From Bacteroidaceae bacterium (lineage in GTDB: Bacteria > Bacteroidota > Bacteroidia > Bacteroidales > Bacteroidaceae): 64,000 nt of DNA. The first letter of the stretch is position 1; each line of letters starts with the position of its first letter. The stretch lies in the NCBI GenBank assembly GCA_017642425.1, contig JAGCPB010000078.1:16841-80840 (forward strand), written 5' to 3'. Both the position numbers and the translations under genes were made by a program. This document shows positions 1-23,185 of this stretch, piece by piece. The notes under the pieces are model-generated. The model saw nothing but the letters and a program-made list of their open reading frames with translations. It was not told the origin of the DNA and did not search any database.

Positions 1-3000
1 CCGGAACTATGTTGTCTGTAAGTTCACCGCGTAGTGATATGAGTTGTTCCAAAGCCCTTAGGTTGGCTCTGCCTCCCAACGCTGTCTGATCGGCAGCGGT
101 AAACTCATAGTTGCCGTTCTTTATATCATCCCAATAGGTTTGATTGATATTTGCGTTGGTGAGCATGGTCTCTATAGAACCGGTGTTATTGGTGATATAC
201 TGGTTCCTTTCAGTCTCTGTCATAAGCTCCTGAGCAACTATGAACTGGGTCTCTGACAACTTGATAGTGCTGGTGCAAACGTATGCCGGCTCTACCTTGT
301 TGTTAAGTGCAGCAGGCCATGTGCCGTCTTCAGAATATTCTGACATGGCAAGTTTTGCACCCTTCTGCAAGTGCTGTAGCTCATTTGTTCCTACAGGGCT
401 GGCCTCAACATACTCTGTAGTTAGGTATGCTGGCTCAAATGAAGTGGTGTCCGCATAGTCATCCTGATTACTCAGTCTCTTATATGCCGAAGCGTATTTT
501 GTATATTCAGACTTGGTAATGATATCACCCAGCTTATAGTTCCTGCGGCCGTACAAGCCACTGTTGTAAGGTGTGTACGTAGGTCCGTCTATATAGTCCA
601 CCTTACTTGTAAGTTCATTGTATTGAGCTGTGGTTACCTTGTCCTGATTGACATTCTGGCTTGCTATAGGCGTGTACCACTTGTCCCAGATGTTGGGGTT
701 GTTAATGTCAAAGGTAAGGATATAACCGTTTCCGTTGTTTATGTTGTTTGATGAACGGAATACATACTTGTTGCCTGCGGGTTCTTTATCGCCGTCAAGC
801 AGGGTGTCACCATCGGCAGTCCAGTAACTGTGGTCCTGAGCAATGATAGCCTGGTATTCATCCCTTGTAAGAACCAGGTCACCTGCCTCATAATACTTGT
901 AGTTGGATGCGTTCTTGTCAGGTGTATCCATGCTCATACCTACTATGTTAAGGTAGGTCTCCTCCTCAAACAGTGCCTGCTCTGCCTTGGTCAGCTGACT
1001 CCAGTCCCAATAGTTGATGGGGTCATTCAGGTAGTATGTCACATCATTCACCACCAGTTTCTGGCCGGGTTGCAACTTGGTCTTGGTACCGCTTGTTGAT
1101 GATGCATTTGAGTAGAGTGCGTATCTGTTGGGCTGTACATCCACCAACTTAAGTTCACTGTAAGATGCGGTGGTGATGGTTAGAGGTATGTCAACGGTCT
1201 CACTGTAAGCGTTGGGTGATCCGGAGTATGCAGATATGTACTGGTCATAGATATAGACTTCACCCTTGATGTACCAATAGTGGGCCGGTACGGCATTCTC
1301 ACCATAGTATCGTCCGCCTATGTTGTAGCAGTCATCAATGATATCCTTCTGGCTGTGGACAAAGTTACCCGATGCCTCCCAGTGATCTTCTGCATTGGAG
1401 CCTGCATATTGGAAATCATCCTTTGATACGGCACCTTGATTGAGCGCTATCACCGGCGGATGCGGGTTAGTGTGGCTGCTGCGAGTTCCGTGAATGTTCT
1501 TGGCATATACAAAGCCGCCGCCCACACCGCTTGACACATTGATAAGGTCAAGTTCTATCACACCTGTTATGATACCCCAGTCCTTCTCATAAAGATCATT
1601 GCCGGTACTCTTCTCAGTTGTGAGTTCCAGATATACGCCCGATGCCAGGGCCACTTTGTTGTGGCTGTTTCCGTTGTTACGGGACTTGTTCTTGTAGTTG
1701 GCTTTCTTCCAGATGGAGTAGGTGGCCTCACCGTAAGGAATGGAGTCTGAATCTATCTTTGCAGCTATCTGCATTGTCTCCTTGTCTGTGACACGGATAT
1801 CTCCTTCCATATTGTTGACATCGGCATTACCAAAATCAACATCGCTTGACAGGGCGCCCAGATAGTTTACTATGTTGTATATACCAAAGTAGTTACCGTG
1901 CATGGCCTGGTACTCAGCGGTATCTGATGGAATGGCTGATATCTTTTTGTTAAGTGACACCTCGCGTACGCGGTTGATGGTGTAGTTGATGTAGTCTGCG
2001 GTCTCAGGTACACGGTCCTGTGCACCCTGCATAACCATACGGCTACCCCATACACCGCTGAAATCAGCTCGCTGCATGGTGTTCATTATACGTCCTGCAT
2101 AGATGGAGCATACACCGTTCTGTTCCCAGATGCTGTCATTCGGAACCCAGGTCTTGCCATCGGCTGACGGTTTGAGAATGTCACATTCAATGCTTGAATT
2201 ATAGTGGGCCTTGAGTGAAACCATCTTCTGTTGTACGCTGTCAAACTCAAGGAACAGGGTAAGCATCTCCTGGAATGTGATTGTTGATGCCTTTGAGTTG
2301 CCGCTCTGTGGCCTGTAGGTGGTGTTCTCCTTATCCGTACACTCGCTTACGCACTTGTACTTGACTTCATAGTAAGCCTGTTCACGCGGAAGCAACTTCT
2401 CATAGTCAGCATAGCTGATCTCCATGTCATTCATCATGTTGTAGTAGTCAGTTCCGTAGTTGGTTATGTTCAGCTCACGGTAGCCGTCTACAAACGTAAG
2501 GTTGCCGTCGCCATACAGACCGCCTGTGTGGCCGGTACCTACTGTGATGAAGTCACGGTGATAAGCATCGTTGATGGTTGCAGTCGCATTGCCAAGAACG
2601 GTGCTTGTGTTGGCGTTCAAGGCCTTGCCTGACGATACGTTACCTCCGGCAAATACGGCGTTATGTATCTTTACGCCACGCTCTGTCTTTATGTTGTTAG
2701 CCAGATCTACGGTTCCGGCATCCACACCGCTCCAATCTTCAGGATTTGTCTTGTGTGATCTTAGGCCGTTAAGATATGATGTGGGGATATACTCACCCTT
2801 GGCGTATCTGGTCTTGCCTGGAAGTTCAGGTGCTTCATAATTGATTCCGTTGGCCGCTGTAACCTCAAGCCAAGGCTCCACAAGCACATTGCAGTCCTGT
2901 GTCAGGACCCTGCTGCCGCCTTCCATTACCCAATCGTTGTTTTCATCATCCCACTTATAGTAATAGCCTTCATATCCGTCATCATACCTTGTGCCGTCCT

Positions 3001-6000
3001 TCTTTCCTTCTGCGCTGAACACATAACCCTGGTCTCCGCCGCCGAACACGTTGCCGTAGCCCATTGCAACGCCGTTCTCGGTTCCTATCTCACCACCGCG
3101 TATGTTGACATCGGTCTTGCCGAATACATAACCATCAGTATGAAGATTGTGGCCGCCTCCGTATCCGAGTGCGTTGTAACCCTTGCCGCCTCCAAATATA
3201 TTGCGCTCCACATAACCGTTATACATGTATATGTGGGTCTGTCCGGGTTGGATTATGGTTATGTTGTTGTCATTGTTTGAGTTGGTTCCGCGGCCCACAG
3301 TGGCAATCTCACCGCCTCCAAATACGCTGTTGCGAATCCTGCCGCCGTAAATGGTAACAAATGAATTGTCAACGCTGCTCATGTCATCATATCCGCTGCC
3401 AAACACGTTACCACAGTCAGCCAGACTCTGTTTCCCGCGCCATTCACCTTCTGACCAGTTGGTCTCGTCATTTATTTTCTCCTCATAACGGGCATAGTTG
3501 TACTTGTCACCGTCAGCGGCAGTGGCATTAACTATGTATCCCTGTGCATCCTGCTTCTGGCCTGCAGCAAGATATACATATCCTATGCGGCCGTTGTAGA
3601 CAGTGATGTTGGCGTTACCTATCACGGATCCACCCTCACCGCCGGCGTATGCGTTACGCTGTATTGCGGGAACTCCACGTGTCAGATAATTGGTGGAGTC
3701 GGCACTATCTTCAGATATGCCCATACGGCCAATAACCACATTGGTCTCACCGGGAATATCATTTGTCGTGCTGCTCTTTTCACTGAAACCTACGTCACCT
3801 TCCCATCCGCCACCGTATACGTTACGTGCTATTCCGCCTTCAATATAGGCGTTGACGCTGGCTGTGTAACCATACTGATTGTTGTCGGCATCGTATGCGC
3901 CTACTTGGAATGCGTCATATATGGCTCCTGTTGTGCCGGCGGCATATAGATCCTTCTTTACTGTGCCGCCCAGCAATGCTATGTATGTGGTACCGTATAT
4001 ATTACCGCTCTGTACCAATTCGGGCGTGCCACGGTGACCAAGACCGCCGCCGTAAGCATAGTTGCCTACGTATGCACCTTCATTTATGATGACGTTGGTG
4101 TTAAACCTGTTGGTTTTGAATACTCCCAGCTTAACCAGTGAATCCAACTCTGTGCGCTCAGTTACCAGAGGGTTGTTAAGGTTGGTGTATTGGTTGGACT
4201 CATAGAAATGGCTCTCTTTGCCGAAATATTCGAATGCGGCTGCTGCAGAAGCAGAATCCTCATAGTGGCTACCCAACAGCCATCCTGCTTTCCATTGGGC
4301 AAGTTCAATAGAATCATTGGAGCTGTTGTTGTCAGTATTCAACCCCTGGACAGTATAGTAGTCCTGTATGTATTTCTGTATGCTGGAGGCATTGATAACC
4401 AAGCCATTATGTCCGCCGCCATAAACCTCATAAACACTCGCGCCGGAATTCAGGTTGACTTCTGTGTACTCTGACCATGTGTTCTCACCGTAGCCGGCTC
4501 CAAACACATTGGCAGTGGTTTTTCCTATATAGTTATAATGACTGTCCTTTCTAACCGGAACGTCAATGTTGATCTGGCTGTAAAGGGTGCGGCGGCGGTT
4601 GTTGTTACCTCCGAATATGGCGCCCTTCATCAGTTCGTTACCTCTGGTTACCTGGGTCTCTGCTCCTTGCTCGTCTTTTACTGTCTCGGTTCTGGCCGGG
4701 TCATAGTATAGCCATGCATCACTGCTGTGATACTCAACGTGAGCCTCATATACATCGCACGGGTCAAGGGTTACATTTCCGTATGCACCGCCGAATATAC
4801 TGCCTATGTTAATGGTTGAACCACTGGGTACATTAACCATTGTACGGCGGGTGATACCTTCATTGTAACTGCCTCCGTATGCAGCACCCACCTTTCCGCG
4901 TATCAGGTCAATCCTGGCTGTTGCCTCTTCAAGTTCTTCTTCAGTAGCTACACCGGGTAACAGACTCTCTCTCATACCAAGTCCGCAGAAACTTCCGGAT
5001 CCGAATATCTCGGTATAGCGGAAATTATCCATGGTATAAGGTACGTCTATGAGGACATAACTGTGATCCTGGAACTTGTCACAATCACGGCTGCCGTGAT
5101 AGCCTGTACCACCTCCAAAGAGAAGGTTTACTGTACTGTATTCAGGGCCTTTTATGCTCTTGTCATCCTCCGGGCGGAAGTTTACGAACGAATTGTGCAG
5201 ATATGGCATTGAAACCTTATGTCCGTCAACAAAGTACTCCGGGTCATCATATGGGTAGTTACCGTAGTTGCCGCCGAATATGGTGTCAACGCGTCCCTGC
5301 AGATACTCGATGTATGCTCTTGGGGTCTTGATGTAATTGGGAACGCTTGCAGCGTCATTGATATCAATGTTCAAAACTTGACAGACAGAATCACTTAAAT
5401 GACTGGCCATATTGTAGTCACCTTCACCGTATATGGTGCCGCTAAAGTCATTGCCGCCGTAAACGATATCACGTACAAACGGGAACCCTTTTATTATACT
5501 GCCGTCATCATCTTTCTGTCTACCTACATAGACCTCTGTATGGCCCATGATATCGGCATTACTGGCACCTCCAAACGCATCATAAATATAACCGTTACCC
5601 AGATAGACGTAAGAGTTACCGCTTACGATACCCTCATTGCCGGCTCCGTAAAGATATTCAGCCTCCGGTGTTCCGGCCGGAACGGTATCAGTCTCTGCGT
5701 AGACGGTTGTAGTTCCACGCAAGTTGACGGTGGTACTGTAACGCTTATCAAATGCGTAGCTCCTTATGGGGTATCCTGATTCATCAGTACCAGTCTGAAC
5801 GCCACGGCCTACGGCGCCTTGTTCACCTCCGCCGTACATCTGCAGTGCATAGCCGCTCTTGAAGTTGATGGTGCTGCTGCCCCAGATCTCGGTGTGTTCA
5901 CCCTTTCCGCCTCCAAATACGGATAGAGCTATAGAGTTTACATCAAAACTCTGTTCATCAAGTATGACACCGCTGTTCCTGTCACCTGTAATTACCAGTG

Positions 6001-8674
6001 AGTCAGGATTGCTTGGGTGTGGAGTGGCTACGGCAAACAGGCCCTGGAGACCTAAAGTCGGGTTGTCATATTTCTCCAGGATATTGCCGTTGATATTGAT
6101 TACGATATTGCCGTTGACGTGACCGCTGTTGTAACAACCTCCATAAATGTTACCGCCCATGAGACGACGGTTGATATCATCCTCCTCTTCATTAGTGCCA
6201 ATGGCAATAAAACCTTCATCGGTATCATCATCCCACTTGGCGGTGTTCCATTCCAGTTTGGTTCCCTGTTTTGTCAGTTCGTAATAGTATTTATTCTGGG
6301 AATAATCTGTCTGCTCCGTACCGTCGGCAATGAACATGCCGGAGCGCATGTTTGTCTCATAATATTTCTTGCCTGCGGTCAGAGTAGTGTTATCGGCCAC
6401 CTTGCTGAATTCATCATTCCATCTCATGGGCTGGATTCTTGGGCCGTTCAGACTCAGTTCCAGACGATCCTTTATGAGGCCGTTCTGCTGTCCGTCAACA
6501 GTATAGACAGTCTCTGTACTGTCACCCAGTATGCCACCGTCATAAGCAGCGTTGTAGTCTGACGGAACAATATACGCGTTGTTACAGCCGCCCACAATCT
6601 TGTCATAGATTATGGCTTTTGCAGTTATAGACAAGGAGAGTTTGCCCGGGTAGGTCATGCTACCTACGTTACCTCCCATGAACAGTGAGCCTATGTAGCT
6701 GGTGTAGTCCAGGTAATCATAGCGGTCCTGGTTTGCCCTGCTGTCAAATGATACATACGGCAGCAAACTCATGGCCGCACCCTCCATGTAGGTGCTGAAA
6801 GTAAGTGAATCCGTAAGGTCAATACTGCTGAACTCGATACCTCCCTGGGGATTATTTGTAGGCTTGCCGTCGTTATCCGTTATGAGCTTGCCGTCACTGC
6901 CTACCCAGCCGGAATAGAGCTTGAGAATATCCTCTTCAACCATATTCTCACCATTATTGCCCATGAACACGTTGTCAGCAATAACGTATGAGCCTATCTT
7001 AAGTTCAACCTTGGGGTTACTCTTGCTTGTTCTGAGTGTGGCGCTGTTACCGCCGCAATATACTGAGCCGCCTATCTTGGTGGTATCTCCCACTTTTCCC
7101 ATCAGGTGTATGGACACCTGCTCTGCATCGGGACGGAAATCATTCATGGCCTGAGCCGATGTCTTTCCGCTTGGAACGGTATAGTAGAGGTCTGAATAGA
7201 TGTCGCTATTTATAAGTTCAGCATTGTCTGTGTAAGGATATGAGCCGTTTCCGCCGCCGTACACATCGCCGCTTATACTGGTATATATACCTACAGCGTT
7301 ACCGCCGGTTACGTGACCGGTCACATCATTACCGCCATAGACATTGTTCACTTTTCCACCCCTTACTATCACTCTTGCGGAGAGACCTGCCGGGAATGCG
7401 TACTGTTCTCCTGTCTTGGTGGTATTAGTAGCGTCCAACTGGATCTGCCAATCCTCGGCATCGACAGCTGTGCCGTCTGCTATTGTACCTGATTTGAGCG
7501 GACGTACATCGGCCATACGGCTGCCTCCATAGACGTTGTCTATAACCAGCAGGTCTGTGCTATCGGGGTCTATATCCAGCAGCAATCCCTTAATGTGGGT
7601 CATGCAACCCTTGTTACCTCCGCTGTAAAGGTTACGAACCTTACCTGCTTCCAGATACCATTTGGGTTGTATGGCCATCTCGGCCAGGTTGTTACCGCCG
7701 AACATACGGCCTATCTGATACTCGTCACTGTTGGGCTTGGAGAATCCGGTGTTGATTCCCATGGCCTTGAAACGCTGGGTGGTAAGTATGTTATCGCCGT
7801 TTTCGTTATCCAGTTGGAGTGTGGTGGCGTTAACCTTGATTTCATTTACCACATCACTGAGATTGTCCATGCAGATGATGGTGGTGTCGCTAACTGTGGC
7901 CTTGTTTCCGCCGCCGTAAGCATATACAATTGAGCCGCCGTGTATGTTGATTATGGTCTTATCCAGCTCCGGTGCGTTGAATCCGGTATCAGACTTGGGT
8001 GTGGCCTTTGAAACTATCGGGGCATTGCCTGCTATTGAATCCTCCTTGGATTTGTAGATCTTGTGTGTTACGATTGTGTCTGTTCCGTTAATTACCTCAG
8101 TCGCTGAGTAGTAATAATCACCGTTACCGCCGCCAAACAGCTGGCCTATGTAAATTTTCTTGGCGTCCGAGATTACTTGAGTAGTGCCTGTTCCGGTAGT
8201 GTCCTTGTGGTTTGAGATGTGCACAAAAGCATCCCATGAATCATTGATTTTGCCGGCTGTCTTCTCTTGAGCCAGTTCTGACGGAACAGAGGCTTGTGCC
8301 GAACTCTTGCCGGTACCTATGTGACCCGATATGTCATTACCTCCGTAGACACGGTTAATAACCATGTAGTCTGTGGCACCGGCGGTCTGACCGTCTATGT
8401 TTACGAATGCGTTACCGGCTATATCAGCCATACGGGCTCCTCCAAACACGCTGCCGCCGGGGTTATCTACGTTATCTGTACCCAGGTTGCCGGACAATAC
8501 ATGTACGGTTGTGTTACCGCCCACGTTACCCATATCACCACCGCCATATACGTTACCGCCAATGGTAATCTGCGCATTGATATGGGCTGAGATACCTGTT
8601 GCCAGTATAAGCAGCATACCCCACGACCTTAAGCCGAAGGGCTGGGTTTTACGTATGTAGCTGAATATGTTCAT
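1..8674 (-). CDS. Giant secreted YGG-repeat surface protein (partial, runs off left edge)
   Basis: The frame is open from ATG 8672-8674 to base 1, which gives 2891 complete codons with no stop. The N-terminus has a basic start and a hydrophobic core ending near NAQ (residues 1-36). This is a plain signal peptide with no lipobox. The rest is a degenerate repeat, typically N-V-Y-G-G-G-(N/D/E)-x-G-x-V, recurring about every 30-70 residues. I counted about 39 copies by eye, for example NVYGGGDMGNV, QLFGGGNGDYY and SVFGGGEIATV. Between copies are strand-like runs such as TTVHVLSGN. This suggests a beta-solenoid or other repetitive beta adhesin (inference). The last roughly 900 residues seen are less repetitive and Tyr/Asn rich. 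The C-terminus is outside the window, so the export or anchoring signal is unknown. The start lies 7 bases after the stop of the upstream fimbrillin, so the two are probably co-transcribed. I cannot assign a named family. Confidence 0.85.
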   Translation of the reverse strand, partial: MNIFSYIRKTQPFGLRSWGMLLILATGISAHINAQITIGGNVYGGGDMGNVGGNTTVHVLSGNLGTDNVDNPGGSVFGGARMADIAGNAFVNIDGQTAGATDYMVINRVYGGNDISGHIGTGKSSAQASVPSELAQEKTAGKINDSWDAFVHISNHKDTTGTGTTQVISDAKKIYIGQLFGGGNGDYYYSATEVINGTDTIVTHKIYKSKEDSIAGNAPIVSKATPKSDTGFNAPELDKTIINIHGGSIVYAYGGGNKATVSDTTIICMDNLSDVVNEIKVNATTLQLDNENGDNILTTQRFKAMGINTGFSKPNSDEYQIGRMFGGNNLAEMAIQPKWYLEAGKVRNLYSGGNKGCMTHIKGLLLDIDPDSTDLLVIDNVYGGSRMADVRPLKSGTIADGTAVDAEDWQIQLDATNTTKTGEQYAFPAGLSARVIVRGGKVNNVYGGNDVTGHVTGGNAVGIYTSISGDVYGGGNGSYPYTDNAELINSDIYSDLYYTVPSGKTSAQAMNDFRPDAEQVSIHLMGKVGDTTKIGGSVYCGGNSATLRTSKSNPKVELKIGSYVIADNVFMGNNGENMVEEDILKLYSGWVGSDGKLITDNDGKPTNNPQGGIEFSSIDLTDSLTFSTYMEGAAMSLLPYVSFDSRANQDRYDYLDYTSYIGSLFMGGNVGSMTYPGKLSLSITAKAIIYDKIVGGCNNAYIVPSDYNAAYDGGILGDSTETVYTVDGQQNGLIKDRLELSLNGPRIQPMRWNDEFSKVADNTTLTAGKKYYETNMRSGMFIADGTEQTDYSQNKYYYELTKQGTKLEWNTAKWDDDTDEGFIAIGTNEEEDDINRRLMGGNIYGGCYNSGHVNGNIVININGNILEKYDNPTLGLQGLFAVATPHPSNPDSLVITGDRNSGVILDEQSFDVNSIALSVFGGGKGEHTEIWGSSTINFKSGYALQMYGGGEQGAVGRGVQTGTDESGYPIRSYAFDKRYSTTVNLRGTTTVYAETDTVPAGTPEAEYLYGAGNEGIVSGNSYVYLGNGYIYDAFGGASNADIMGHTEVYVGRQKDDDGSIIKGFPFVRDIVYGGNDFSGTIYGEGDYNMASHLSDSVCQVLNIDINDAASVPNYIKTPRAYIEYLQGRVDTIFGGNYGNYPYDDPEYFVDGHKVSMPYLHNSFVNFRPEDDKSIKGPEYSTVNLLFGGGTGYHGSRDCDKFQDHSYVLIDVPYTMDNFRYTEIFGSGSFCGLGMRESLLPGVATEEELEEATARIDLIRGKVGAAYGGSYNEGITRRTMVNVPSGSTINIGSIFGGAYGNVTLDPCDVYEAHVEYHSSDAWLYYDPARTETVKDEQGAETQVTRGNELMKGAIFGGNNNRRRTLYSQINIDVPVRKDSHYNYIGKTTANVFGAGYGENTWSEYTEVNLNSGASVYEVYGGGHNGLVINASSIQKYIQDYYTVQGLNTDNNSSNDSIELAQWKAGWLLGSHYEDSASAAAAFEYFGKESHFYESNQYTNLNNPLVTERTELDSLVKLGVFKTNRFNTNVIINEGAYVGNYAYGGGLGHRGTPELVQSGNIYGTTYIALLGGTVKKDLYAAGTTGAIYDAFQVGAYDADNNQYGYTASVNAYIEGGIARNVYGGGWEGDVGFSEKSSTTNDIPGETNVVIGRMGISEDSADSTNYLTRGVPAIQRNAYAGGEGGSVIGNANITVYNGRIGYVYLAAGQKQDAQGYIVNATAADGDKYNYARYEEKINDETNWSEGEWRGKQSLADCGNVFGSGYDDMSSVDNSFVTIYGGRIRNSVFGGGEIATVGRGTNSNNDNNITIIQPGQTHIYMYNGYVERNIFGGGKGYNALGYGGGHNLHTDGYVFGKTDVNIRGGEIGTENGVAMGYGNVFGGGDQGYVFSAEGKKDGTRYDDGYEGYYYKWDDENNDWVMEGGSRVLTQDCNVLVEPWLEVTAANGINYEAPELPGKTRYAKGEYIPTSYLNGLRSHKTNPEDWSGVDAGTVDLANNIKTERGVKIHNAVFAGGNVSSGKALNANTSTVLGNATATINDAYHRDFITVGTGHTGGLYGDGNLTFVDGYRELNITNYGTDYYNMMNDMEISYADYEKLLPREQAYYEVKYKCVSECTDKENTTYRPQSGNSKASTITFQEMLTLFLEFDSVQQKMVSLKAHYNSSIECDILKPSADGKTWVPNDSIWEQNGVCSIYAGRIMNTMQRADFSGVWGSRMVMQGAQDRVPETADYINYTINRVREVSLNKKISAIPSDTAEYQAMHGNYFGIYNIVNYLGALSSDVDFGNADVNNMEGDIRVTDKETMQIAAKIDSDSIPYGEATYSIWKKANYKNKSRNNGNSHNKVALASGVYLELTTEKSTGNDLYEKDWGIITGVIELDLINVSSGVGGGFVYAKNIHGTRSSHTNPHPPVIALNQGAVSKDDFQYAGSNAEDHWEASGNFVHSQKDIIDDCYNIGGRYYGENAVPAHYWYIKGEVYIYDQYISAYSGSPNAYSETVDIPLTITTASYSELKLVDVQPNRYALYSNASSTSGTKTKLQPGQKLVVNDVTYYLNDPINYWDWSQLTKAEQALFEEETYLNIVGMSMDTPDKNASNYKYYEAGDLVLTRDEYQAIIAQDHSYWTADGDTLLDGDKEPAGNKYVFRSSNNINNGNGYILTFDINNPNIWDKWYTPIASQNVNQDKVTTAQYNELTSKVDYIDGPTYTPYNSGLYGRRNYKLGDIITKSEYTKYASAYKRLSNQDDYADTTSFEPAYLTTEYVEASPVGTNELQHLQKGAKLAMSEYSEDGTWPAALNNKVEPAYVCTSTIKLSETQFIVAQELMTETERNQYITNNTGSIETMLTNANINQTYWDDIKNGNYEFTAADQTALGGRANLRALEQLISLRGELTDNIVP

Positions 8675-8681: not shown

Positions 8682-10007
8682 CTATTCTATACTTAATTCA
8701 AGTTTAGCATCATCATCAGACAACTGATACAGATACGTGGGCTTGACTGTTACTTTTACCTTGAAATGGTGACCGGGCTCCGGTACAACCTCCGGATCGT
8801 CATCTCTCTTGAACAGGTTGAGGGGGAATTTGTTCTCAACCGTCTCATTCTCTCTTATCACTCTCATTCCGCCGTTTATGTTGTCCGGGCAAAGCACATC
8901 GTAGGTTACCTTGAGCTTGGCGGCGGGATATTTGGCTCGTAAGGGGCTGTCGGCGTTGCCGGTATATGTGATCGGCAGGAAACAGAACCATCCGAACTCC
9001 TTGTAGTTTGTGGTAAGGGTTATGTAATCTGCTTCATCATCAAGGAGGGCTGTCGATGACTCTCCTCTTAGCAGATCCACCACCAGGTCCTGATTGCCCA
9101 GGGCACTGCCGAAATCGGCATTGCCTGCCAACTGCAGTCCTTCAGTGTAGGAGTATGTGTGCTCTCCTGTAAGAGTGCGTTCATCCTTGTCAACAACCAT
9201 CTTTACATCCTTGATGCGGATATCGCGGATGGCATCATATGCAGCGTCAATACGGAATGACAATGTTGCCTTGGCATAAAAATGGTCCATGGCCATCCAG
9301 ACACGGTAGAAATCATTGGGGTCACCCTCGGCTGGCTTGACCACCTTGCCTATGGAGTATGATCCCTTGGTCAGGGTGGGGGGGGCAAGGGGTTCCAGTT
9401 CAGGGGGATTTCCTTCTGTCTTAACCTGCTTTTCAATGCTCCCGTCATAGATGTCATACATGGTGTGCTTGCCTGCTGCTGCAATGTTCACCATGGGGTC
9501 TGATGATGTGATAACGTCCAGACCGGAGAATGTGAATTTTACGTTGTTTGCGTTGAAAGGTGAACCGCCCCAGTTGAATGTCTGGTTTGATGCACCGGGA
9601 AAATTGTTGGGGGTGATGGCGTAGAGGTTGTAATTCTTGCCATCAGTTGGAGTTACTGATGAACGCCATTTGTTGCTCCTGAATCTGAATGTGCCGTAGA
9701 CTGAGTCTTCTTTTACGGGGTTAGGATCTGTAGGAACGGCATACACCAGGATTATTGTGTTGTTGGCAACAGAATCGTGATAGTGGGTGGTAGTGGGAGT
9801 TCCGCTTACACTAACCTCCTGGGCGCGGGTGGTTATGACGGTCTCCGTATTTATGGAGACAGCAGGTGTGAGTGTGACTCTGGGCTCCATGCTGTAAAGG
9901 TGATCCTTACGGCATGACGCCAGCATCAACATCACAGAGATTGCGCAGACTGCGATAGTCCTTATTGTCTTTAGTCCGGCAATTAATGTGTTACCTGCCT
10001 TGGTCAT
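8682..10007 (-). CDS. Fimbrillin-like lipoprotein, last of the array
   Basis: This is a 441-residue protein. A longer reading frame exists, but ATG at 10005-10007 is preferred because it puts the signal peptide and lipobox (LMLASC, Cys32) near the N-terminus. The earlier ATG would lie inside the end of the preceding gene. After the lipobox come an ITTRAQ motif (Arg61) and strand-rich sequence with the fimbrillin-like segments NFPGASNQTFNW and FYAKATLSFRID. It ends in a KVKVTVKPTYLYQL strand rather than the D/E-W ending of the other array members. That, and its place next to the giant gene, could make it an anchor or tip-adaptor subunit (inference). It belongs broadly to the Mfa/Fim superfamily, but I cannot name a subfamily. 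It is probably co-transcribed with its neighbours. Confidence 0.75.
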   Translation of the reverse strand: MTKAGNTLIAGLKTIRTIAVCAISVMLMLASCRKDHLYSMEPRVTLTPAVSINTETVITTRAQEVSVSGTPTTTHYHDSVANNTIILVYAVPTDPNPVKEDSVYGTFRFRSNKWRSSVTPTDGKNYNLYAITPNNFPGASNQTFNWGGSPFNANNVKFTFSGLDVITSSDPMVNIAAAGKHTMYDIYDGSIEKQVKTEGNPPELEPLAPPTLTKGSYSIGKVVKPAEGDPNDFYRVWMAMDHFYAKATLSFRIDAAYDAIRDIRIKDVKMVVDKDERTLTGEHTYSYTEGLQLAGNADFGSALGNQDLVVDLLRGESSTALLDDEADYITLTTNYKEFGWFCFLPITYTGNADSPLRAKYPAAKLKVTYDVLCPDNINGGMRVIRENETVENKFPLNLFKRDDDPEVVPEPGHHFKVKVTVKPTYLYQLSDDDAKLELSIE

Positions 10008-10062: not shown

Positions 10063-11298
10063 TTACCAGTTGTAGTAAATACGTGAAACGTCATGCTCGG
10101 TCCAGTCCTGGACGGCAATCTGCTTGACGCTTATTCCACCGCTGGAGGTGTCAATCATCAGCGTTATGATGTACTTCTTGCCCGGTTGGGTCTTATACCC
10201 AAAGTTGTCCTCTCCAATGGTGGTTGGCGTCTTGGGCGCATTAGCCAAGTCAACTAATGGATTGATGTCTGTCATTTCATCACCAACCTTGTAGTTGTAC
10301 GTGGCGGATATGTTTATGCCCTTCCACTTGCGCGGAATCATAAGCCAGCGGCCTATACGGACCGAACCTTCAGAACTCTCTACCGTATCGTTTGCAGCAG
10401 AGCTGAAAATGGTGAACCGTCCTGTGAGTTCATCCTTGAATGGAATCAGGATGCCGGCATCGTTCCTCATAAGCAGGAAATTGGTGGCCGTGTCAACAGA
10501 TGACGTCACCACTGATGCATGCGCATCCTCACTGCTCTGTATGAATTCCGATGATTCATTGTCATCACTGCCATCTGTTCCGGACAATACATCCCCGAGA
10601 CCCGGTTGTGACTCGCTCAGCATTATGGCTTTCATCTTTACGCCCCCGTCTTTCTCCTTGAATGCACCTACATAGTAGGCCCTTATCTCCAGCTGCGCCA
10701 GCAGATGCTCAAAACTCAGGTTTACTATGCCGCCTGCAAAATCATACCGGCGTGTCCCTATCCTGCGGGCGGTCATGTAGTCTTTCTCAGTATTGTTCAC
10801 TTCCTGCCAGTTGGGAACATTCGTTATGTGCACTGTCATGCTCCTGGTGCCGGTGTCGAAAGACGAATATACGTTGTCGTTATAGGGCCAATATGCAATG
10901 AACTGATAGGATCCCGCGGGGTCCCAGTATCTTGAGGGGGTATAAACCCATGGAACCTGTGTTACTGCCACAGTGGGTGCGGGACGGGCGGAAGGCTCAG
11001 GGTAGACACGCATATTGTCAAATAATTTCGTGTTGCTGCCATTCTGAGCCAACTTGTATCCAAAGACTCCGAATCCTGCATTTGCATTAGGGTTGCCGGA
11101 TATGTCATAGCATTCGCTGATCATCTTATAAAGCCTCACGGTATCTACAGGGTCTTCAATGAGGGCCTTGGAACCGGATGCCGTTACATCAATGACAATA
11201 GGTATATCGTCGGGCATCATCTTATGATGCGCGCATGATGTAACCAGACACAATGCCATTAAGGCTAATGCCGATAGGATTATTGGAGTCTTTCTCAT
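10063..11298 (-). CDS. Fimbrillin family lipoprotein
   Basis: This 411-residue protein has a type II signal peptide with lipobox LVTSC (Cys22). It shows the landmarks of Bacteroidales Mfa-like fimbrillins: a short strand after the lipid anchor, a basic residue where the others have T-R-A (here GSKAL, Lys44), then WVYTPSRYWDPAGSYQFIAY. That W.YTP..YWD...Y.F.A block recurs in every true fimbrillin here. It ends AVQDWTEHDVSRIYYNW, the V-x-D-W terminal strand. It lies 3 bases after the stop of the upstream TSP3-type fimbrillin. Family members are lipidated, carried to the outer membrane, and assembled after Arg/Lys-specific proteolysis; that is family knowledge, not seen here. Confidence 0.85.
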   Translation of the reverse strand: MRKTPIILSALALMALCLVTSCAHHKMMPDDIPIVIDVTASGSKALIEDPVDTVRLYKMISECYDISGNPNANAGFGVFGYKLAQNGSNTKLFDNMRVYPEPSARPAPTVAVTQVPWVYTPSRYWDPAGSYQFIAYWPYNDNVYSSFDTGTRSMTVHITNVPNWQEVNNTEKDYMTARRIGTRRYDFAGGIVNLSFEHLLAQLEIRAYYVGAFKEKDGGVKMKAIMLSESQPGLGDVLSGTDGSDDNESSEFIQSSEDAHASVVTSSVDTATNFLLMRNDAGILIPFKDELTGRFTIFSSAANDTVESSEGSVRIGRWLMIPRKWKGINISATYNYKVGDEMTDINPLVDLANAPKTPTTIGEDNFGYKTQPGKKYIITLMIDTSSGGISVKQIAVQDWTEHDVSRIYYNW

Positions 11299-11301: not shown

Positions 11302-12813
11302 TTATTTTACGTCGTAATCAGCCATGATAACATCGTCCCAGTCGCAGACTGTGGCGGTGAACTCTATTGCGGCCTCCTCTGTGTCACGTTCCGGATAAAT
11401 CTCGCCTGTTACAGGGTCTTTCTCCAACTGTACCCAGGTATCAGGAGTGCCGTCATCATCAGTGTCAACCTTGACCAGAATCACGTCCTTGCCATCAGGA
11501 TTGTTGGGATTGCCGTCCGACGGGTCGTTATGCGGGTCACCTCCCTGGTTGGTATCATTATCCTCGTCTATGTTGTCTATGTGGCCGTCTCCGTCGCGGT
11601 CTATACCGGCTTCAAGCAGATCATCTCCGTCAACATCTTCCCATACAATGGGATACTCTACCCAATCAGGTTTGCCGTCACCGTCCTGATCCTCCTCAAG
11701 CACCTGTATCACATCCGGATTCTCCGGGTCATACTTCATTGTGCCCGGGGTGGGAGTGTCATCGGTAGTGGTGATTGTATCGCCGGTGTCAGGATCTATG
11801 ATAATGCTTCCGTCGCCATCAGCATCCCATACGCGTGTGCTCTGGGTGGGGTTGAACACCAGTGTGTAGTTGTAACGGCAGTTTATATCCCATGACGATA
11901 TCTTTACTGTACTGTCCTTAGTGGTTCCGTTTATACCAGCCAGACGAATGCCTTTCTTGGTAAAGGTTGAACTGGTTCCATCCGTGTAGCGGATACGGAA
12001 TACAGCGTCTATCATTACGTCTTGTGCCGTTGCCTGAGTGGTAAACAGCTTCTGCGGCATTACCATGTAGTCACTCAGTATGTCCGATGCCGTGCCGTCA
12101 GTGTTAACGGCTATGTTTGTGATATCAGCTATGTTCATAAGGCCGCTCTGTCCGGACCATTCTCCCACAGGAACATTGGCCGATGTCCAGCCTGTCTGAG
12201 TATATGTACCTGTGTTCTTTATTCCGCTCAGGTGAAGGCGCTGCAGTGTGGCTGAACTAACGCCGCTGGCATCAAATTTGTTAGAAATCTTTACCTTGAT
12301 ATTTAAGTTGCTCAGGATGTGGTGGAATATCATGTCAACGGTGTTGAACGGTGATATGGCACGCATCTCGGATATCATAAGGTCTGTCTGCTGGTCAGCG
12401 TCATCCGGGTTGACATAGTTGGCTATGGTAGCTTTGTTGTCATCGCCTATAACATACAGGTCCTTACTGTATGGGAACATACCGTAGAACTTGTATGTGG
12501 ACATGATATTCCACAGTTTGGTGTTGTCATACTCCCAGTCATTCTCAGCCTTGAAATATACAGGCTGGTTGTTGAATATGGTATCCACGATGTCATCTGT
12601 AGTCTGATATCCCCACACACCCATGGTGTCACCTGCCACAAACGGGGTGGCACCGTTTTTTGATGCACGTGTCATGCTTGACACGTAGTTGCTGAATTTG
12701 ATATCAGCATTTGGGCGCTGGCCTATCTCTTCAGGCTCATACAGACTTATGTTGTTTGTGCAGGCAGCCAAAATAAGCAATGCTGCTGCAACTGATACTA
12801 GTTTAAGTTTCAT
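11302..12813 (-). CDS. Fimbrillin lipoprotein with Asp-rich thrombospondin-3-like repeats
   Basis: A 503-residue protein with lipobox LILAAC (Cys18) and processing-type motif SMTRAS (Arg49). The fimbrillin body runs to the YNYTLVFNP strand near residue 330. About 150 residues of Asp/Gly-rich repeats follow, such as DADGDGSI, DQDGDGKPD, DRDGDGHID and DTDDDGTPD. They match the DxDxDGxxD calcium-binding pattern of thrombospondin type 3 repeats. The fold then resumes with the last strand, IEFTATVCDWDD. The repeat block is therefore inserted before the C-terminal strand rather than added to the end. The gene is a close paralogue of the next one upstream, and the two share PI-W-(E/Q)-D-(V/I)-D. Calcium binding is inferred from the motif. 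It could stiffen or lengthen the subunit. Confidence 0.87.
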   Translation of the reverse strand: MKLKLVSVAAALLILAACTNNISLYEPEEIGQRPNADIKFSNYVSSMTRASKNGATPFVAGDTMGVWGYQTTDDIVDTIFNNQPVYFKAENDWEYDNTKLWNIMSTYKFYGMFPYSKDLYVIGDDNKATIANYVNPDDADQQTDLMISEMRAISPFNTVDMIFHHILSNLNIKVKISNKFDASGVSSATLQRLHLSGIKNTGTYTQTGWTSANVPVGEWSGQSGLMNIADITNIAVNTDGTASDILSDYMVMPQKLFTTQATAQDVMIDAVFRIRYTDGTSSTFTKKGIRLAGINGTTKDSTVKISSWDINCRYNYTLVFNPTQSTRVWDADGDGSIIIDPDTGDTITTTDDTPTPGTMKYDPENPDVIQVLEEDQDGDGKPDWVEYPIVWEDVDGDDLLEAGIDRDGDGHIDNIDEDNDTNQGGDPHNDPSDGNPNNPDGKDVILVKVDTDDDGTPDTWVQLEKDPVTGEIYPERDTEEAAIEFTATVCDWDDVIMADYDVK

Positions 12814-12848
12814 TGTTTTCCAGTTAATTTGTGGTTTAACAGGTGGGA

Positions 12849-14693
12849 TTAGTCATTAATTATGTACTCTGCGTTGTAATCATCGTTCCACTCAGATACG
12901 GTAGCTGAGAACTGGATCTCGGTGGTTACCTCAGGTATCTCGGGCTCGCCTGAATCCTTCTCCAGCTCGTACCATACGATGTTGCCGTCGGCATCCTTTT
13001 CATAATCCTGTGATCCGTCGGTGTTATTGATTACGTGAGCGTACAGGATTACATCATACTGGTTGTCATTGCCCAGATAATCCTTGCCATCGTTATCATA
13101 GGTGTCAGCTGCGGTCAGAACGCCGTCACCATCCTTGTCGGCAATACCTTCCAGCTTACCGTCACCGTCTATATCCTTCCAAAGTACTGTGATATCGGCC
13201 TGGCCGTCATGGTCGGTGTCAACCCAGTAGTCTCCGTCGGTGTTGCTGATAAGCCATGAGGTGGGTTTCATATAACCTTCGCCTGCGGCACCGTCATAAT
13301 CAACGTATGCGGTATCAGGATAGGTGGGATCTGTGGGATCGTTGGGCAGTCCGGGATCAGAGGGTGTGGTCTTTTCACGCTCCAACTCTGTCTCAACAGC
13401 ACCGTCGTTGTCTTTATCCATCCAGATTACGTCAGGATTGCCGTCATTATCAGAATCATCGGGCTGGCCGTCATTGTCGCGGTCGGGCAGACCCTCTTCC
13501 TTACCGTCATTGTCAATATCCTGCCATATGATGGGATAGTCCTTTACGTCATCCAGATCCTCATCAATCCACCACTCATCAGTTACACCGTCACCATCAT
13601 TGTCTACCTGTATGATGTTTACGTTAGGTCCAATCGGGTTGGTGGGATCCTGGTTTGCATAGTCATCCTGATCGTGGTCGGGGTTGGCTATAGGCAGGTG
13701 CTGTCCGCCTTGCTGGGTGATTGAAGGATTCACTGAAATGGTGTAGTTGTAGCGGTAGTTGGGCTCCCACTTAGCCAGGGTTACAGACTGTGTGGGGTCT
13801 GATGCCTTGCTGCCTACAATCTTGTTCAGTGCTATGGAACGGCTGAAAACAGAGACTGAACCATCTTCATAAACAAGCTGGAATGTGATGCTTATCTGTG
13901 CATTGTCATTAATGTTCTGCGGGAGCAGAAGCAGGTCATCAGTCAGTGTCTGTGCTGTTGTTGAACCTATGGTGTAAACTGCATTGGTAACCTTGGGCAT
14001 GTCATAGACAGATGTTTCATCGGCAGTCCACAGACCGGAGAACACGTTGTTGCTGTTCCAACCGCTCTGTGCAAATGAACCCTTGCTGTACAGGCCTGTA
14101 ACATCAAAGCTGGTAACCTTTACGCTGGCAATACCGGTGGTGTTGAACTCACTGGCAGTCTTTACGTAGAAGTTTACGTTACTGAGTATGTGGTTGAACT
14201 CAAACTGAACCATATTGTAGGGCAGATGTCCTGAAATCTTCTTGGCTATCATCAGGTCAATCTGGTCACGGGCGGTATCCTGTACAGTAAAGTTGCTTAT
14301 GCTGAACAGTTTGGTGCTCTGGTTAAAACTGTTGTCATCACTGTAGGGGTATACAGCATAGAAGTCATAGGTTGAGTTCTTTTCCCAGTACTTTACGGGA
14401 GAGTATGCCCAAATCTCACCACCGTTGTTGGTTACCAGCTGCTTGTTGAAAAGCAGAGCCTCCTCAGAGTTGTCAAGTGCCTGGAAGCCATATACTTCCA
14501 TCATGTCTCCATTCTCAAATGAGGCGCCGGTAGCCTTAGATGCACGGGTCAGACCGGTTACGTAGTTGCTGAACTGGATCTCAGAACTGCTGTCCTTCTT
14601 ACTCTCAATACCATTCAGCGTTGTGCTCTCCTGACAAGCCTGGAACATCATCATCATGGCTGCTCCAGCCAAAAGAATTACTTTCTTTTTCAT
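12849..14693 (-). CDS. Fimbrillin lipoprotein with long Asp-rich thrombospondin-3-like block
   Basis: At 614 residues this is the longest fimbrillin of the array. It has a Met-rich signal peptide, lipobox MFQAC (Cys20) and GLTRAS (Arg50). The body has W.YSPVKYWEKNSTYDFYAV and closes on YNYTISVNP at about residue 330. A block of more than 200 residues of Asp/Gly-rich repeats follows: DNDGDGVTD, DIDNDGKEE, DRDNDGQPD, DTDHDGQAD, DIDGDGKLE and DKDGDGVLT. The ending is IQFSATVSEWNDDYNAEYI, the usual terminal strand. The block has two sub-arrays separated by a Thr/Pro-rich linker (TPSDPGLPNDPTDPT), so the repeats may have been internally duplicated. Repeat-array length is the main difference from its downstream paralogue. 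Ca2+ binding is inferred from the DxDxDG pattern. Confidence 0.87.
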   Translation of the reverse strand: MKKKVILLAGAAMMMMFQACQESTTLNGIESKKDSSSEIQFSNYVTGLTRASKATGASFENGDMMEVYGFQALDNSEEALLFNKQLVTNNGGEIWAYSPVKYWEKNSTYDFYAVYPYSDDNSFNQSTKLFSISNFTVQDTARDQIDLMIAKKISGHLPYNMVQFEFNHILSNVNFYVKTASEFNTTGIASVKVTSFDVTGLYSKGSFAQSGWNSNNVFSGLWTADETSVYDMPKVTNAVYTIGSTTAQTLTDDLLLLPQNINDNAQISITFQLVYEDGSVSVFSRSIALNKIVGSKASDPTQSVTLAKWEPNYRYNYTISVNPSITQQGGQHLPIANPDHDQDDYANQDPTNPIGPNVNIIQVDNDGDGVTDEWWIDEDLDDVKDYPIIWQDIDNDGKEEGLPDRDNDGQPDDSDNDGNPDVIWMDKDNDGAVETELEREKTTPSDPGLPNDPTDPTYPDTAYVDYDGAAGEGYMKPTSWLISNTDGDYWVDTDHDGQADITVLWKDIDGDGKLEGIADKDGDGVLTAADTYDNDGKDYLGNDNQYDVILYAHVINNTDGSQDYEKDADGNIVWYELEKDSGEPEIPEVTTEIQFSATVSEWNDDYNAEYIIND

Positions 14694-14737
14694 TTTCTTT
14701 TTTGTTTATATTATTTTACTTTCAATTTTCAATCTCT

Positions 14738-15826
14738 TTAGTTAATCCAACTGTGTCGTGCAGGCTCATTGTCCCACAGGGTAGATCCGGCATCGAACGT
14801 GATGATTTCAGGTCCTATGGTTATATGTAGCGTGTAGTTGTTGGCACTCTCAAACTTGGTGAATGCATCATCAAGGTCAAACAGGTAGGTGAAGTGCTCC
14901 ACACGTCCTCCCTCTGAGTGTATGGAATAGCTGATATAAACCTGCTGACTGGCTGTCACGTTTTGCGGCAACAGCAATGACTCTATTACGCAACAGCCGC
15001 TTGAAGGTACTGTAGCATCTTTTGTGCCGTACAGTGTATAGTGCTGATGTAATGAGTCTATTACCCATTCCTGTAAGGTGTCAGTACTTACAGGGGTGCG
15101 GTTAAGTTTCTGGCTGAAATCGGCCTTGCTCAGGAAATCTCCTATAGCCAGGCTGTCTAAGACAACCTGATTGCCCGATTCTGTTATTGCAGTGCTGGCC
15201 TTTACCATAACGTTGAACTTGGCCAGTATGTGCTGCATGTTGAATGTTACACGTGTGTGAATCCTTTCTTTAGGGATAAACTGCCCTGTGCGGTCAATCA
15301 TCCAGTCTGTGTCATGTACACTCTTGAATGTGCCCAGAGGCTGAGGCTGTGCTGTGGTGCTCATGGTATTGTCACCATTCAGGGTTATTCCCTGTATGTT
15401 AATGTGCCCCGTCTCATCATTAATGGTTACGGTTGCATCTGTCACGGATTTTCCGTGTGGAGCGTAAGCGTAGAATTTGTAAGAACTGCCTGTCTCCCAG
15501 TATTTTGCGGGAGAGTATGTCCATTGGTCAAGCTCAGGATTGTATGTCACTTCCTGATTCAGGAAGAGACATACAACCAGCTCGTCTTTTGTGGTCTGCC
15601 AACCCCACACACCCATACTTGATGTGTGTTCACTAAGCAGACTAAGCTGGCCGGCTTTTGTACGTACAGGAGCGTCTATGACGCCATTACCAAAGCTTAT
15701 GGCCAAGGTGTCGCCGCCTCTGCTCTCCTCAAGGAGCTCAGTGACCACGCCATCATACTGGCATCCGGCCAGCAGCAATGCGCCTGCCAGCAACCAAACC
15801 AGTCTATGTCCAGCCTTCATAAGCAT
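14738..15826 (-). CDS. Fimbrillin family lipoprotein
   Basis: A 362-residue protein. ATG at 15824-15826 is chosen because AGGAAAAAAG lies just upstream; an in-frame ATG 33 bases earlier would give an unusually long basic N-terminus. Lipobox LLLAGC (Cys22). The basic site is PVRTKAG (Arg55). The body has WTYSPAKYWETGSSYKFYAY, a conserved HILAKFNVMV strand, a VIESLLLPQN segment, and the end strand ITFDAGSTLWDNEPARHSW. The roughly 230-base gap before it holds a palindrome (15996-16028) and a possible -7 box, so it may have its own promoter or be expressed differently from the genes upstream. Confidence 0.83.
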   Translation of the reverse strand: MLMKAGHRLVWLLAGALLLAGCQYDGVVTELLEESRGGDTLAISFGNGVIDAPVRTKAGQLSLLSEHTSSMGVWGWQTTKDELVVCLFLNQEVTYNPELDQWTYSPAKYWETGSSYKFYAYAPHGKSVTDATVTINDETGHINIQGITLNGDNTMSTTAQPQPLGTFKSVHDTDWMIDRTGQFIPKERIHTRVTFNMQHILAKFNVMVKASTAITESGNQVVLDSLAIGDFLSKADFSQKLNRTPVSTDTLQEWVIDSLHQHYTLYGTKDATVPSSGCCVIESLLLPQNVTASQQVYISYSIHSEGGRVEHFTYLFDLDDAFTKFESANNYTLHITIGPEIITFDAGSTLWDNEPARHSWIN

Positions 15827-15940
15827 CTTTTTTCCTGTACTTTTTTTAAAGGCAATCACAATATATACCTATATTATAATATACCTTATTACTACATTAC
15901 TTTACAATCCAGCCAGCTTGCCTGCACAAACAATTAAAGG

Positions 15941-15948
15941 CAAACCTA
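15941..15948 (-). promoter_or_regulatory. Possible -7 promoter box inside the fimbrillin array
   Basis: Read on the minus strand this is TAGGTTTG, a full match to the Bacteroidetes -7 consensus TAnnTTTG. It lies about 115 bases before the fimbrillin start at 15826, in one of the array's longest gaps. No convincing TTG was found at the -33 spacing, so the call is tentative. Confidence 0.3.
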
Positions 15949-15995
15949 ACTTTTTATAAATACCATTGGTCATCTAAGCGCTCACGCTCTCTTTT

Positions 15996-16028
15996 GTGAC
16001 CGGAGGGGCGGTCAAGCCCCGCCGGCCT
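15996..16028. repeat. Intergenic palindrome, copy 1 (3' of a fimbrillin stop)
   Basis: A 33-base element begins GTGACCGG and ends GCCGGCCT. It folds into a stem of about 12 bp with a 6-base loop (minus-strand loop TTGACC). It lies 32 bases after the stop of the fimbrillin ending at 16060. Copy 2 (18571-18603) has the same length, outer stem and relative position. No U-run follows, so it looks like a 3'-stabilising or processing hairpin rather than an intrinsic terminator. Confidence 0.65.
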
Positions 16029-16059
16029 ATCTAAAGAAAAGAGTTAGCTTGATGATTGG

Positions 16060-17274: not shown

Positions 17275-17308
17275 ACTTGTACTGTTTTTAAGAATTTAAT
17301 AATATAGG

Positions 17309-18523: not shown

Positions 18524-18570
18524 AATCTCTTTTCTTTAAAATTGTTAGTTAATAATTTGGTTTTTTTCTG

Positions 18571-18603
18571 GTGACCGGTAGGGGTTTCAATCCCTGCCGG
18601 CCT
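18571..18603. repeat. Intergenic palindrome, copy 2 (3' of a fimbrillin stop)
   Basis: The 33 bases begin GTGACCGG and end GCCGGCCT. The inner stem differs from copy 1 at 15996-16028, but base pairing is largely kept. It lies 15 bases after the stop of the fimbrillin ending at 18619. On the minus strand it is followed by an A-rich, not U-rich, run. Pairing kept despite sequence change suggests the structure matters. Confidence 0.65.
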
Positions 18604-18618
18604 GTTTGTTATATGAGA

Positions 18619-20184: not shown

Positions 20185-20208
20185 ATTGCCTTTTGTTTTT
20201 TATTGTTT

Positions 20209-21375: not shown

Positions 21376-21410
21376 AAGTCTTTTGTTTTTTATTGTTTGT
21401 ACTTTTTTTC

Positions 21411-21611
21411 TCAATTAATGAAGCGCACTGTTGAATGACTATGGCGTGAGTAATCTCCGTTGATTACTTGCTCGTTCTCGTGATTGGCTCTGCCCTCGGT
21501 GGTAGTGGAGGATTTGGTAGTAAACAGAGCCATAAGCGCAGCGAGGGCGAGCGATGCAATCGCAGCCATGCTCAAATAGCCTAGTTCGCTTCTCTTTAAT
21601 CTCGTAAACAT
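21411..21611 (-). CDS. Small single-span membrane protein in the fimbrial operon
   Basis: A 66-residue ORF between the DUF5119 gene and the first fimbrillin. The N-terminus is basic (FTRLKRSELGY). One hydrophobic segment covers residues 14-31 (LSMAAIASLALAALMALF). A polar tail of about 35 residues follows, rich in Ser, Thr, Asn and His. There is no lipobox Cys. The layout fits a type II membrane peptide or an uncleaved signal-anchor. It fills most of the gap between two operon genes in the same direction, and AAATAGGT precedes the ATG. I do not recognise a family. It may assist fimbrial assembly, but that is only inferred from position. Confidence 0.6.
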   Translation of the reverse strand: MFTRLKRSELGYLSMAAIASLALAALMALFTTKSSTTTEGRANHENEQVINGDYSRHSHSTVRFIN

Positions 21612-22910: not shown

Positions 22911-22940
22911 TTGAATTTGTTCTTTTTTTTGTTTCCGTTG

Positions 22941-23158: not shown

Positions 23159-23185
23159 CATCGTAACAGATTAAAAGGACTCTAT

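What the first reader, a model, noticed from the sequence alone, without database searches (positions are those of the whole stretch)
1..8674. Giant secreted protein built from about forty Y/F-G-G-G/N motifs at the end of a fimbrial operon
Seen: one frame of at least 2891 codons with a signal peptide and a degenerate repeat every 30-70 residues. Inference: a very long repetitive beta-structured adhesin displayed with, or capped by, the fimbrillins upstream. I know no named family with this repeat. It is the strongest candidate for an undescribed component.
Basis: partly seen in the sequence, partly recalled or inferred. Interest (0 to 1): 0.8.

Follow-up and report, generated by a model that had tools for sequence, protein, structure and literature searches.

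The report
Giant secreted proteins beside pilus genes
Gut bacteria related to Prevotella, a good part of them from ruminants, carry next to their pilus genes a conserved protein of about 4,000 amino acids with a type IX secretion signal, often followed by further proteins built from the same short repeat (one of 11,862 amino acids), and the family catalogues that we searched have no name for this repeat.

Summary
The giant frame is real but cut by the window. On its contig it has 4252 aa: signal-peptide-like start, 28 [YF]GG motifs, long non-repeat regions, and a marginal C-terminal type IX secretion (T9SS) type A sorting domain. It is not the end of the operon: a second giant with the same repeat overlaps its stop by 4 bp and runs off the contig (>=4253 aa); in a same-genus genome one such frame has 11,862 aa. 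The unit is about 25-26 residues. Pfam, NCBIfam and PDB sequence searches name no repeat family. Giant1 is in 23 of 151 family genomes and 5 of 295 of the order (own included) and in three named strains; in 71 aligned rows, 1131 of 4252 columns are >=90% identical. Two fimbrillin-like genes precede it in 75 of 76 loci. The order resembles mfa3-mfa4-mfa5 of Porphyromonas type V fimbriae, whose Mfa5 is T9SS-exported and part of the tip complex. Best reading: a T9SS-exported surface protein, perhaps a beta-solenoid, tied to type V pili through the two adjoining pilins, with repeat partners that lack a recognised sorting domain. Export is well supported; pilus coupling rests on gene order; no structure was modelled (tool off).

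The parts
2..8674 (-). Giant1: first 2891 of 4252 residues; the rest lies left of the window on the same contig (ends at contig C75:12756)
   Evidence: orthologs
8573..8674 (-). Signal-peptide-like N-terminus, residues 1-34 (by eye); Gln35 next to it is >=90% conserved
   Evidence: Q-rule PMC5837995 (start of abstract in the listing)
3035..8548 (-). Region (residues 43-1880) holding 27 of the 28 [YF]GG motifs of giant1; over all 28, GG is >=90% conserved at 21 in 71 rows
1175..2692 (-). Non-repeat middle region (residues 1995-2500), well conserved, used as ortholog probe A1
8682..10007 (-). Divergent fimbrillin-like lipoprotein ('TYLY' protein) directly upstream of giant1; start codon by inspection; no Pfam match of its own; the query used in searches began at 9947, inside its signal peptide
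10063..11298 (-). Fimbrillin-like protein ending in YNW (Mfa_like_1, 47.5 bits)
11302..21414 (-). Seven further Mfa_like_1 fimbrillins (11302-12813, 12849-14693, 14738-15859, 16060-17274, 17309-18523, 18619-20184, 20209-21414)
21678..22943 (-). DUF5119 protein, first gene of the run
23156..24397 (+). Divergent AraC-type regulator; on the contig of the giant1 or mini-giant1 locus in 10 of the 12 genus genomes that have both

Best explanation
Giant1 is a T9SS-exported surface protein that works with a type V (Mfa/FimA-like) pilus, in the position that Mfa5 holds in Porphyromonas gingivalis. Steps: (1) Sec export and signal peptidase I cleavage before Gln35 (well supported by sequence). (2) Passage through the SprA/Sov translocon by its C-terminal type A sorting domain (supported by sequence, score marginal). 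(3) The Y/F-G-G-G units fold as short-strand coils of a solenoid, about 25-26 residues a turn where regular, with many insertions (inferred from the residue pattern; no model made). (4) The two fimbrillin-like proteins encoded just upstream join giant1 to the pilus, as Mfa3 and Mfa4 do for Mfa5 (inferred from gene order). (5) Giant2, with the same repeat, a signal-peptide-like start and no recognised sorting domain, is a partner or extension of giant1, perhaps by end-to-end stacking (speculative). Net role: a long, conserved surface fibre or platform for attachment in the gut.
For: Frames of 3840-4465 aa (median 4005.5) in 70 of 80 loci, also in P. lacticifex JCM 34664, Prevotella sp. tc2-28 and tf2-5. 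Sorting domain: TIGR04183 23.8 bits, cut-off 23; 54 of 73 ortholog C-termini match at E<=0.01. SprA_N 653.5 bits in the same genome. Gln35 conserved. Pilin pair upstream in 75 of 76 loci; of 75 'YNW' proteins 25 match FimA, 9 Mfa_like_1, 6 Mfa2, 4 Mfa_like_2, overlaps possible. The pair also precedes giant1 in G581 and G677, of other families of the order, and both mini-giant1 genes. mfa1-2-3-4-5 order, Mfa5 export by T9SS, tandem mfa5 in some strains: PMC8313007 passages; Mfa3 bridges Mfa1 with Mfa4 and Mfa5 at the tip: PMC5954841 passages. Repeat columns 1, 2, 10, 16, 18 and 23 are >=80% hydrophobic; V/I/L autocorrelation peaks at lag 26 in giant2 (z 4.5; 5.4 in G104).
Against: No physical evidence of pilus association; co-transcription would give the same gene order. 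In the whole-protein scan the sorting domain scores 17.9, below cut-off, and 19 of 73 orthologs do not match at E<=0.01. Giant1 itself shows no lag-26 peak (top V/I/L lags 8 and 36, z 2.8 and 2.6), and runs of four or more units at 23-28 spacing were found only three times in 24 giant frames, so long regular arrays are rare. Only 5 of 76 'TYLY' proteins match a fimbrillin model. Giant1 is more conserved than its pilins, while Mfa5 is the variable member of its set (PMC8313007). Distances of giant1 correlate with those of TYLY and YNW (rho 0.45, 0.43; 0 of 500 permutations as high) but shared descent gives that too, and nearest neighbours agree in only 26 and 18 of 70. L115 has giant1 without the pair. 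How giant2 crosses the outer membrane is unexplained: 0 of 15 C-termini match any NCBIfam model.
Confidence: 0.5

Rival explanations
1. Giant1 is an autonomous T9SS surface protein, anchored by the usual type A route, merely co-transcribed with the fimbriae and not part of them.
For: Type A sorting domain; other T9SS type A cargo in the genome (11 TIGR04183 matches, 6 over cut-off); giant1 conserved while the pilins diverge.
Against: The same two pilin genes precede it in 75 of 76 loci, in both mini-giant1 loci and in G581 and G677 of other families.
Confidence: 0.3
2. Giant1 and giant2 form a stand-alone giant filament or coat, and the fimbrillin-like proteins serve it rather than the reverse.
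For: Giant2 reaches 11,862 aa; the giant2 repeat query was positive only in genomes with giant1 (14 of 14, in 151), though the query comes from this very locus; giant1 is the conserved element.
Against: Eight Mfa_like_1 genes and a DUF5119 gene precede the giants here, so a pilus operon is plainly present.
Confidence: 0.12
3. Gliding-type T9SS adhesin of the SprB or RemA kind.
For: Large, T9SS; a very weak profile match of the C-terminus to RemA (8gl6_D, E 0.082).
Against: The match is not significant; the best-matching sorting model is type A, while gliding adhesins use another type (recalled); Prevotella is not known to glide (recalled).
Confidence: 0.03
4. Assembly artefact: metagenome contigs that stitch repeats into a false giant frame.
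For: The window genome is fragmented (114 contigs) and giant2 pieces share contig ends.
Against: Alignable full-length frames in 70 loci and in three named strains, at least one a culture-collection strain; position-by-position conservation.
Confidence: 0.02

Closest known systems
Mfa5 of Porphyromonas gingivalis Mfa1 (type V) fimbriae
   Same: T9SS sorting domain; follows two accessory pilins at the end of a run of fimbrial genes; sometimes two tandem copies; genotypes D and E lack the VWF domain (PMC8313007, PMC5954841, passages)
   Different: Frames of 3840-4465 aa against genes of 2.9-6.6 kb; Y/F-G-G-G repeats; no VWF match; giant1 is more conserved than its pilins; repeat-sharing giant2 often follows; sequence not compared with Mfa5
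T9SS type A cargo (TIGR04183, Por_Secre_tail)
   Same: Sec signal with conserved Gln, C-terminal sorting domain, SprA in the genome
   Different: Size and repeat; the domain is marginal by score
Apilactobacillus kunkeei Giant1-5
   Same: Consecutive genes for surface proteins of 3,000-8,000 aa, four with a predicted beta-solenoid domain (PMC12863079, abstract)
   Different: Lactic acid bacterium; no T9SS or type V pili (recalled); homology not tested
Peptidase_M26_N (GLUG-like) repeats
   Same: Giant2 N-terminus matches PF05342, 34.7 bits, cut-off 27.7, profile positions 181-247 of 250
   Different: No HExxH in giant1, giant2 or the 11,862-aa frame; the YGGG array is not matched

Membership tests
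T9SS type A cargo | C-terminal type A sorting domain over the curated cut-off | tested here: met
   23.8 bits vs 23 in the genome search, but 17.9 in the whole-protein scan; 54 of 73 orthologs at E<=0.01
T9SS type A cargo | T9SS translocon in the genome | tested here: met
   SprA_N 653.5 bits; other T9SS parts not sought
T9SS type A cargo | Signal peptide, with Gln at the mature start | tested here: met
   Q35 >=90% conserved in 71 rows; 56 of 71 by a pattern that allows Q or E; no signal-peptide predictor was on hand
Mfa5 | Place after accessory pilins in a type V fimbrial operon | tested here: met
   75 of 76 loci by C-terminal patterns set after seeing the first loci; pilin models
Mfa5 | VWF type A domain (genotypes A-C only) | tested here: not met
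   No Pfam match at E<=0.1
Mfa5 | Homology to the shared C-terminal half of Mfa5 | not tested
   No Mfa5 sequence was fetched
Mfa5 | Presence in the fimbrial tip complex | not testable with these tools
   needs protein work
RTX beta-roll | HemolysinCabind (PF00353) match | tested here: not met
   No match in giant1 or giant2 at E<=0.1 or in three segments at E<=10
Peptidase M26 | Catalytic HExxH | tested here: not met
   None in giant1, the 4253 aa of giant2, or G104 giant2
Beta-solenoid | Regular solenoid fold | tested here: inconclusive

The most novel reading that the evidence does not exclude
A pilus-coupled, two-component giant surface fibre not described before: a conserved ~4,000-aa T9SS protein is the exported hub, and one or more repeat proteins of up to 11,862 aa, with no sorting domain of their own, are carried out or docked by it through stacking of like solenoid coils, while two dedicated pilins tie the assembly to type V pili.
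Probability: 0.22. Interest if true: 0.82.

Novelty: new variant of a known kind. Interest (0 to 1): 0.57.

Why it matters
Type V pili are common in gut Bacteroidales (recalled), and what sits on them is little known outside Porphyromonas (recalled). A conserved, very large accessory system, here in many Prevotella-type genomes of which at least 20 of 80 are named for a ruminant, could explain how such cells hold on to surfaces or to each other. It gives a testable case of two export routes (lipoprotein pilins and T9SS) meeting in one structure, and supplies alignments for genes that the Pfam and NCBIfam copies searched here do not cover.

Tried and rejected
Known-family explanations. Giant1 and giant2 against Pfam and NCBIfam: besides the PF05342 and TIGR04183 matches told above, only DUF4875 at E 0.12 (12.5 bits, cut-off 25) and a lantibiotic ABC model at E 0.52, both taken as noise. 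PDB sequences: repeat and N-terminal queries, middle region and the two pilins gave nothing but a photosystem II subunit at E 0.19 (95); the C-termini gave RemA at E 0.082 (76). Plasmids and phages: no match to the giant2 repeat (82, 83). DNA tandem repeats in L003: none at the default score. Protease and RTX readings rejected.

Test of absence. Of 37 genus genomes 20 have the AraC regulator, 14 have giant1 (two matches of G119 and both of G452 lie in mini-giant1), 12 have both (Fisher p 0.0055). I looked at 5 of the 8 with the regulator and no giant1 (G465, G467, G470, G444, G462): in each the contig ends within the pilus operon, in G444 already in its first gene (genes named by eye). So absence is not shown there, and genome counts may be lower bounds. 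The other 3 were not looked at. Four same-genus genomes of 96-100% completeness have no giant1 match. The TYLY protein was found by single-sequence search in 10 of 151 genomes, one (G111) without a giant1 match; that search is insensitive for so divergent a protein.

Literature. Eight searches. Listings were capped (15 of 35; 12 of 138; 10 of 32; 5 of 12). No listed title or abstract start deals with this repeat or locus, and the string VYGGGN is in no paper of the library. The library is open access only. I saw passages of PMC13104272, PMC5954841 and PMC8313007, outline and abstract of PMC12863079, and the listing alone of PMC5837995; none in full.

Full report
What is there. The window is G000:C75:16841-80840, so 16,840 bases of the same contig lie to its left. 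The frame of the finding (window 2-8674, minus) continues there and ends at contig 12756: 4252 residues. A second frame starts inside its stop (4-bp overlap) and runs off the contig end after 4253 residues. I call them giant1 and giant2. Upstream on the same strand, with gaps of 3 to 263 bp, lie a fimbrillin-like lipoprotein (8682-10007), eight Mfa_like_1 fimbrillins (10063-21414, the one ending in YNW included) and a DUF5119 protein (21678-22943); an AraC-type regulator points the other way (23156-24397).

The repeat. In the window part there are 20 [YF]GG[GN] motifs against 0.8 in shuffles; in the 4253 residues of giant2, 54 against 2.2. An HMM started from 19 regular units of giant2 ends with the consensus VYGGGNLADVGGNTTVNINGGTVIG and finds 63 units in giant2 and 10 in giant1 above 2 bits, a low bar. 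Giant2 has a V/I/L period of 26 (z 4.5; 5.4 in the G104 frame); giant1 has no such peak. Columns 1, 2, 10, 16, 18 and 23 of the unit are hydrophobic in at least 80% of cases, with polar residues and glycines between. Three short strands per coil of a beta-solenoid would give this pattern; it is an inference. Against great regularity: in 24 giant frames only three runs of four or more units at 23-28 spacing turned up.

Conservation. With the C-terminal 2253 residues as query, 23 of 151 family genomes match (own included), in 5 of 30 genera. Probe A1 from the middle region matches 14 of 37 genomes of the genus and 5 of 295 of the order: the own genome and four from two other families. In named genomes 272 of 328 pattern matches encode a relative; only the best 80 were kept, so the counts that follow concern the nearest relatives. 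Their titles read Prevotella, Prevotellaceae, Bacteroidaceae or Bacteroidales; 20 of 80 name a ruminant, and many others bear RUG numbers, a series that I recall as rumen genomes. As the query is itself close to these, the list does not show that the family is confined to ruminants. Seventy of 80 loci have a frame of 3840-4465 aa (first start codon of the frame); six are cut by contig ends and four are shorter closed frames (L065, L109, L126, L133). In 71 aligned rows, the window's own included, 1131 of 4252 columns are at least 90% identical, and the GG of 21 of 28 motifs is conserved at that level in place. This looks like an old architecture with each unit fixed in place rather than a slipping repeat. 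Mini versions of 1859 and 1904 aa with a like upstream pair exist in G119 and G452. In P. lacticifex JCM 34664, Prevotella sp. tc2-28 and tf2-5 (strains by their titles) giant1 frames have 3893, 3877 and 4038 aa, and frames that match the giant2 C-terminal profile 3101, 3080 and 2196 aa.

Giant2. It varies. Closed frames in the 12 tiled relatives run from 1134 to 11,862 aa and most are shorter than giant1. In the window genome other contigs hold further pieces: two different C-termini (C47, C48), a second N-terminus (C47) and two contigs that are one open frame throughout (C32, C34); C32 shares its end with C75. That points to at least two giant2 genes; they were not assembled. A homolog of the giant2 N-terminus lies after giant1 in 46 of 62 loci with at least 3 kb of flank; in 16 none was found within the flank. 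In G677, of another family, giant1 has no giant2 after it, but a divergent YGGG frame of at least 1801 aa lies upstream of the operon. None of 15 closed giant2 C-termini matches an NCBIfam model; by eye 9 of 15 end in a last coil of the kind GNVYGGGNNAxVTGxTxVxIGK. The giant2 repeat query is positive in 14 of 151 family genomes, all 14 among the 23 with giant1 (hypergeometric 4e-14; not independent, since the query comes from this locus), and in 1 of 296 of a phylum sample, the own genome, in which few genomes of the family were drawn.

Export. Giant1 has a signal-peptide-like start, and Gln35 is the only column before Ile38 that is at least 90% conserved, as the Q-rule for Bacteroidetes signal peptidase I substrates would have it (PMC5837995, start of abstract in the listing). 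Its C-terminus scores 23.8 bits for TIGR04183, cut-off 23, in the genome search and 17.9 in the whole-protein scan; 54 of 73 ortholog C-termini match at E<=0.01. SprA_N is present.

Link to pili. In 75 of 76 loci with the giant1 start inside, a protein ending in (Y/H/F/P)NW and then one ending in a P-T/S-Y/F-L-type sequence come before it; L115 has neither. The second ends within 302 bp of the giant1 start in 72 of the 75; in the other three (gaps 1567, 4296, 4364) the giant1 frame is one of the shortened ones. I set these patterns after seeing the first loci, so this describes synteny and is no independent test. The first class matches FimA, Mfa_like_1 (9), Mfa2 (6) or Mfa_like_2 (4) among 75 scanned; the second matches Mfa_like_1 in 5 of 76. 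In P. gingivalis mfa1 to mfa5 stand in this order, Mfa5 goes through the T9SS, some strains have two mfa5 genes, and genotypes D and E lack the VWF domain (PMC8313007, passages). Mfa3 bridges Mfa1 with Mfa4 and Mfa5 in the tip complex (PMC5954841, passages). Giant1 sits where Mfa5 sits. I do not claim that it is Mfa5: a VWF domain was not found and homology was not tested.

Reading. Shown by sequence: a conserved giant with Sec and T9SS signals in a type V fimbrial locus, with repeat-sharing partners. Inferred: solenoid coils; coupling to the pilus through the two pilins. Speculative: giant2 docking on giant1. If every 26 residues made one coil with the usual rise of about 0.48 nm (recalled), the 11,862-aa protein would be at most about 220 nm long. 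Against a fast-changing adhesin: giant1 is much more conserved than its pilins (mean identity 0.57 against 0.29 and 0.34 over 70 loci).

Novelty. No repeat family in the Pfam, NCBIfam or PDB sequence searches made here, and no paper seen in eight searches of an open-access library, four of them with capped listings. I file it as a new variant of a known kind: type V pilus loci with a T9SS accessory protein, here with an unusually large and conserved member and repeat-sharing partners.

Noticed in passing
L153:10122-19406 (G000:C110): A separate 3095-aa frame of the same genome with a TIGR04183 match of 37 bits and one YGG-type motif: another very large T9SS protein.
   Followed up: no
L172:3672-9248; joined and reversed L173+L174, 20907-26618: 'Mini' giant1 of 1859 and 1904 aa in two same-genus genomes, with a like pair of pilins before it.
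   Followed up: partly
L169-L171 (G677): Giant1 without a following giant2, but a divergent YGGG frame of at least 1801 aa just upstream of the operon.
   Followed up: partly
L161-L165: In five genomes with the regulator but no giant1 found, the contig ends inside the pilus operon, as if this locus often breaks metagenome assembly.
   Followed up: partly
window 33598-52598: A likely polysaccharide utilisation locus: SusC/SusD-like pair, a Reg_prop/Y_Y_Y/AraC regulator, two GH127 and one GH97 enzymes.
   Followed up: no
L026-L028 (G021), 39018-57821 of the reversed join: A giant2 of 6267 aa whose end looks BACON-like by eye, in place of the usual last YGGG coil.
   Followed up: no
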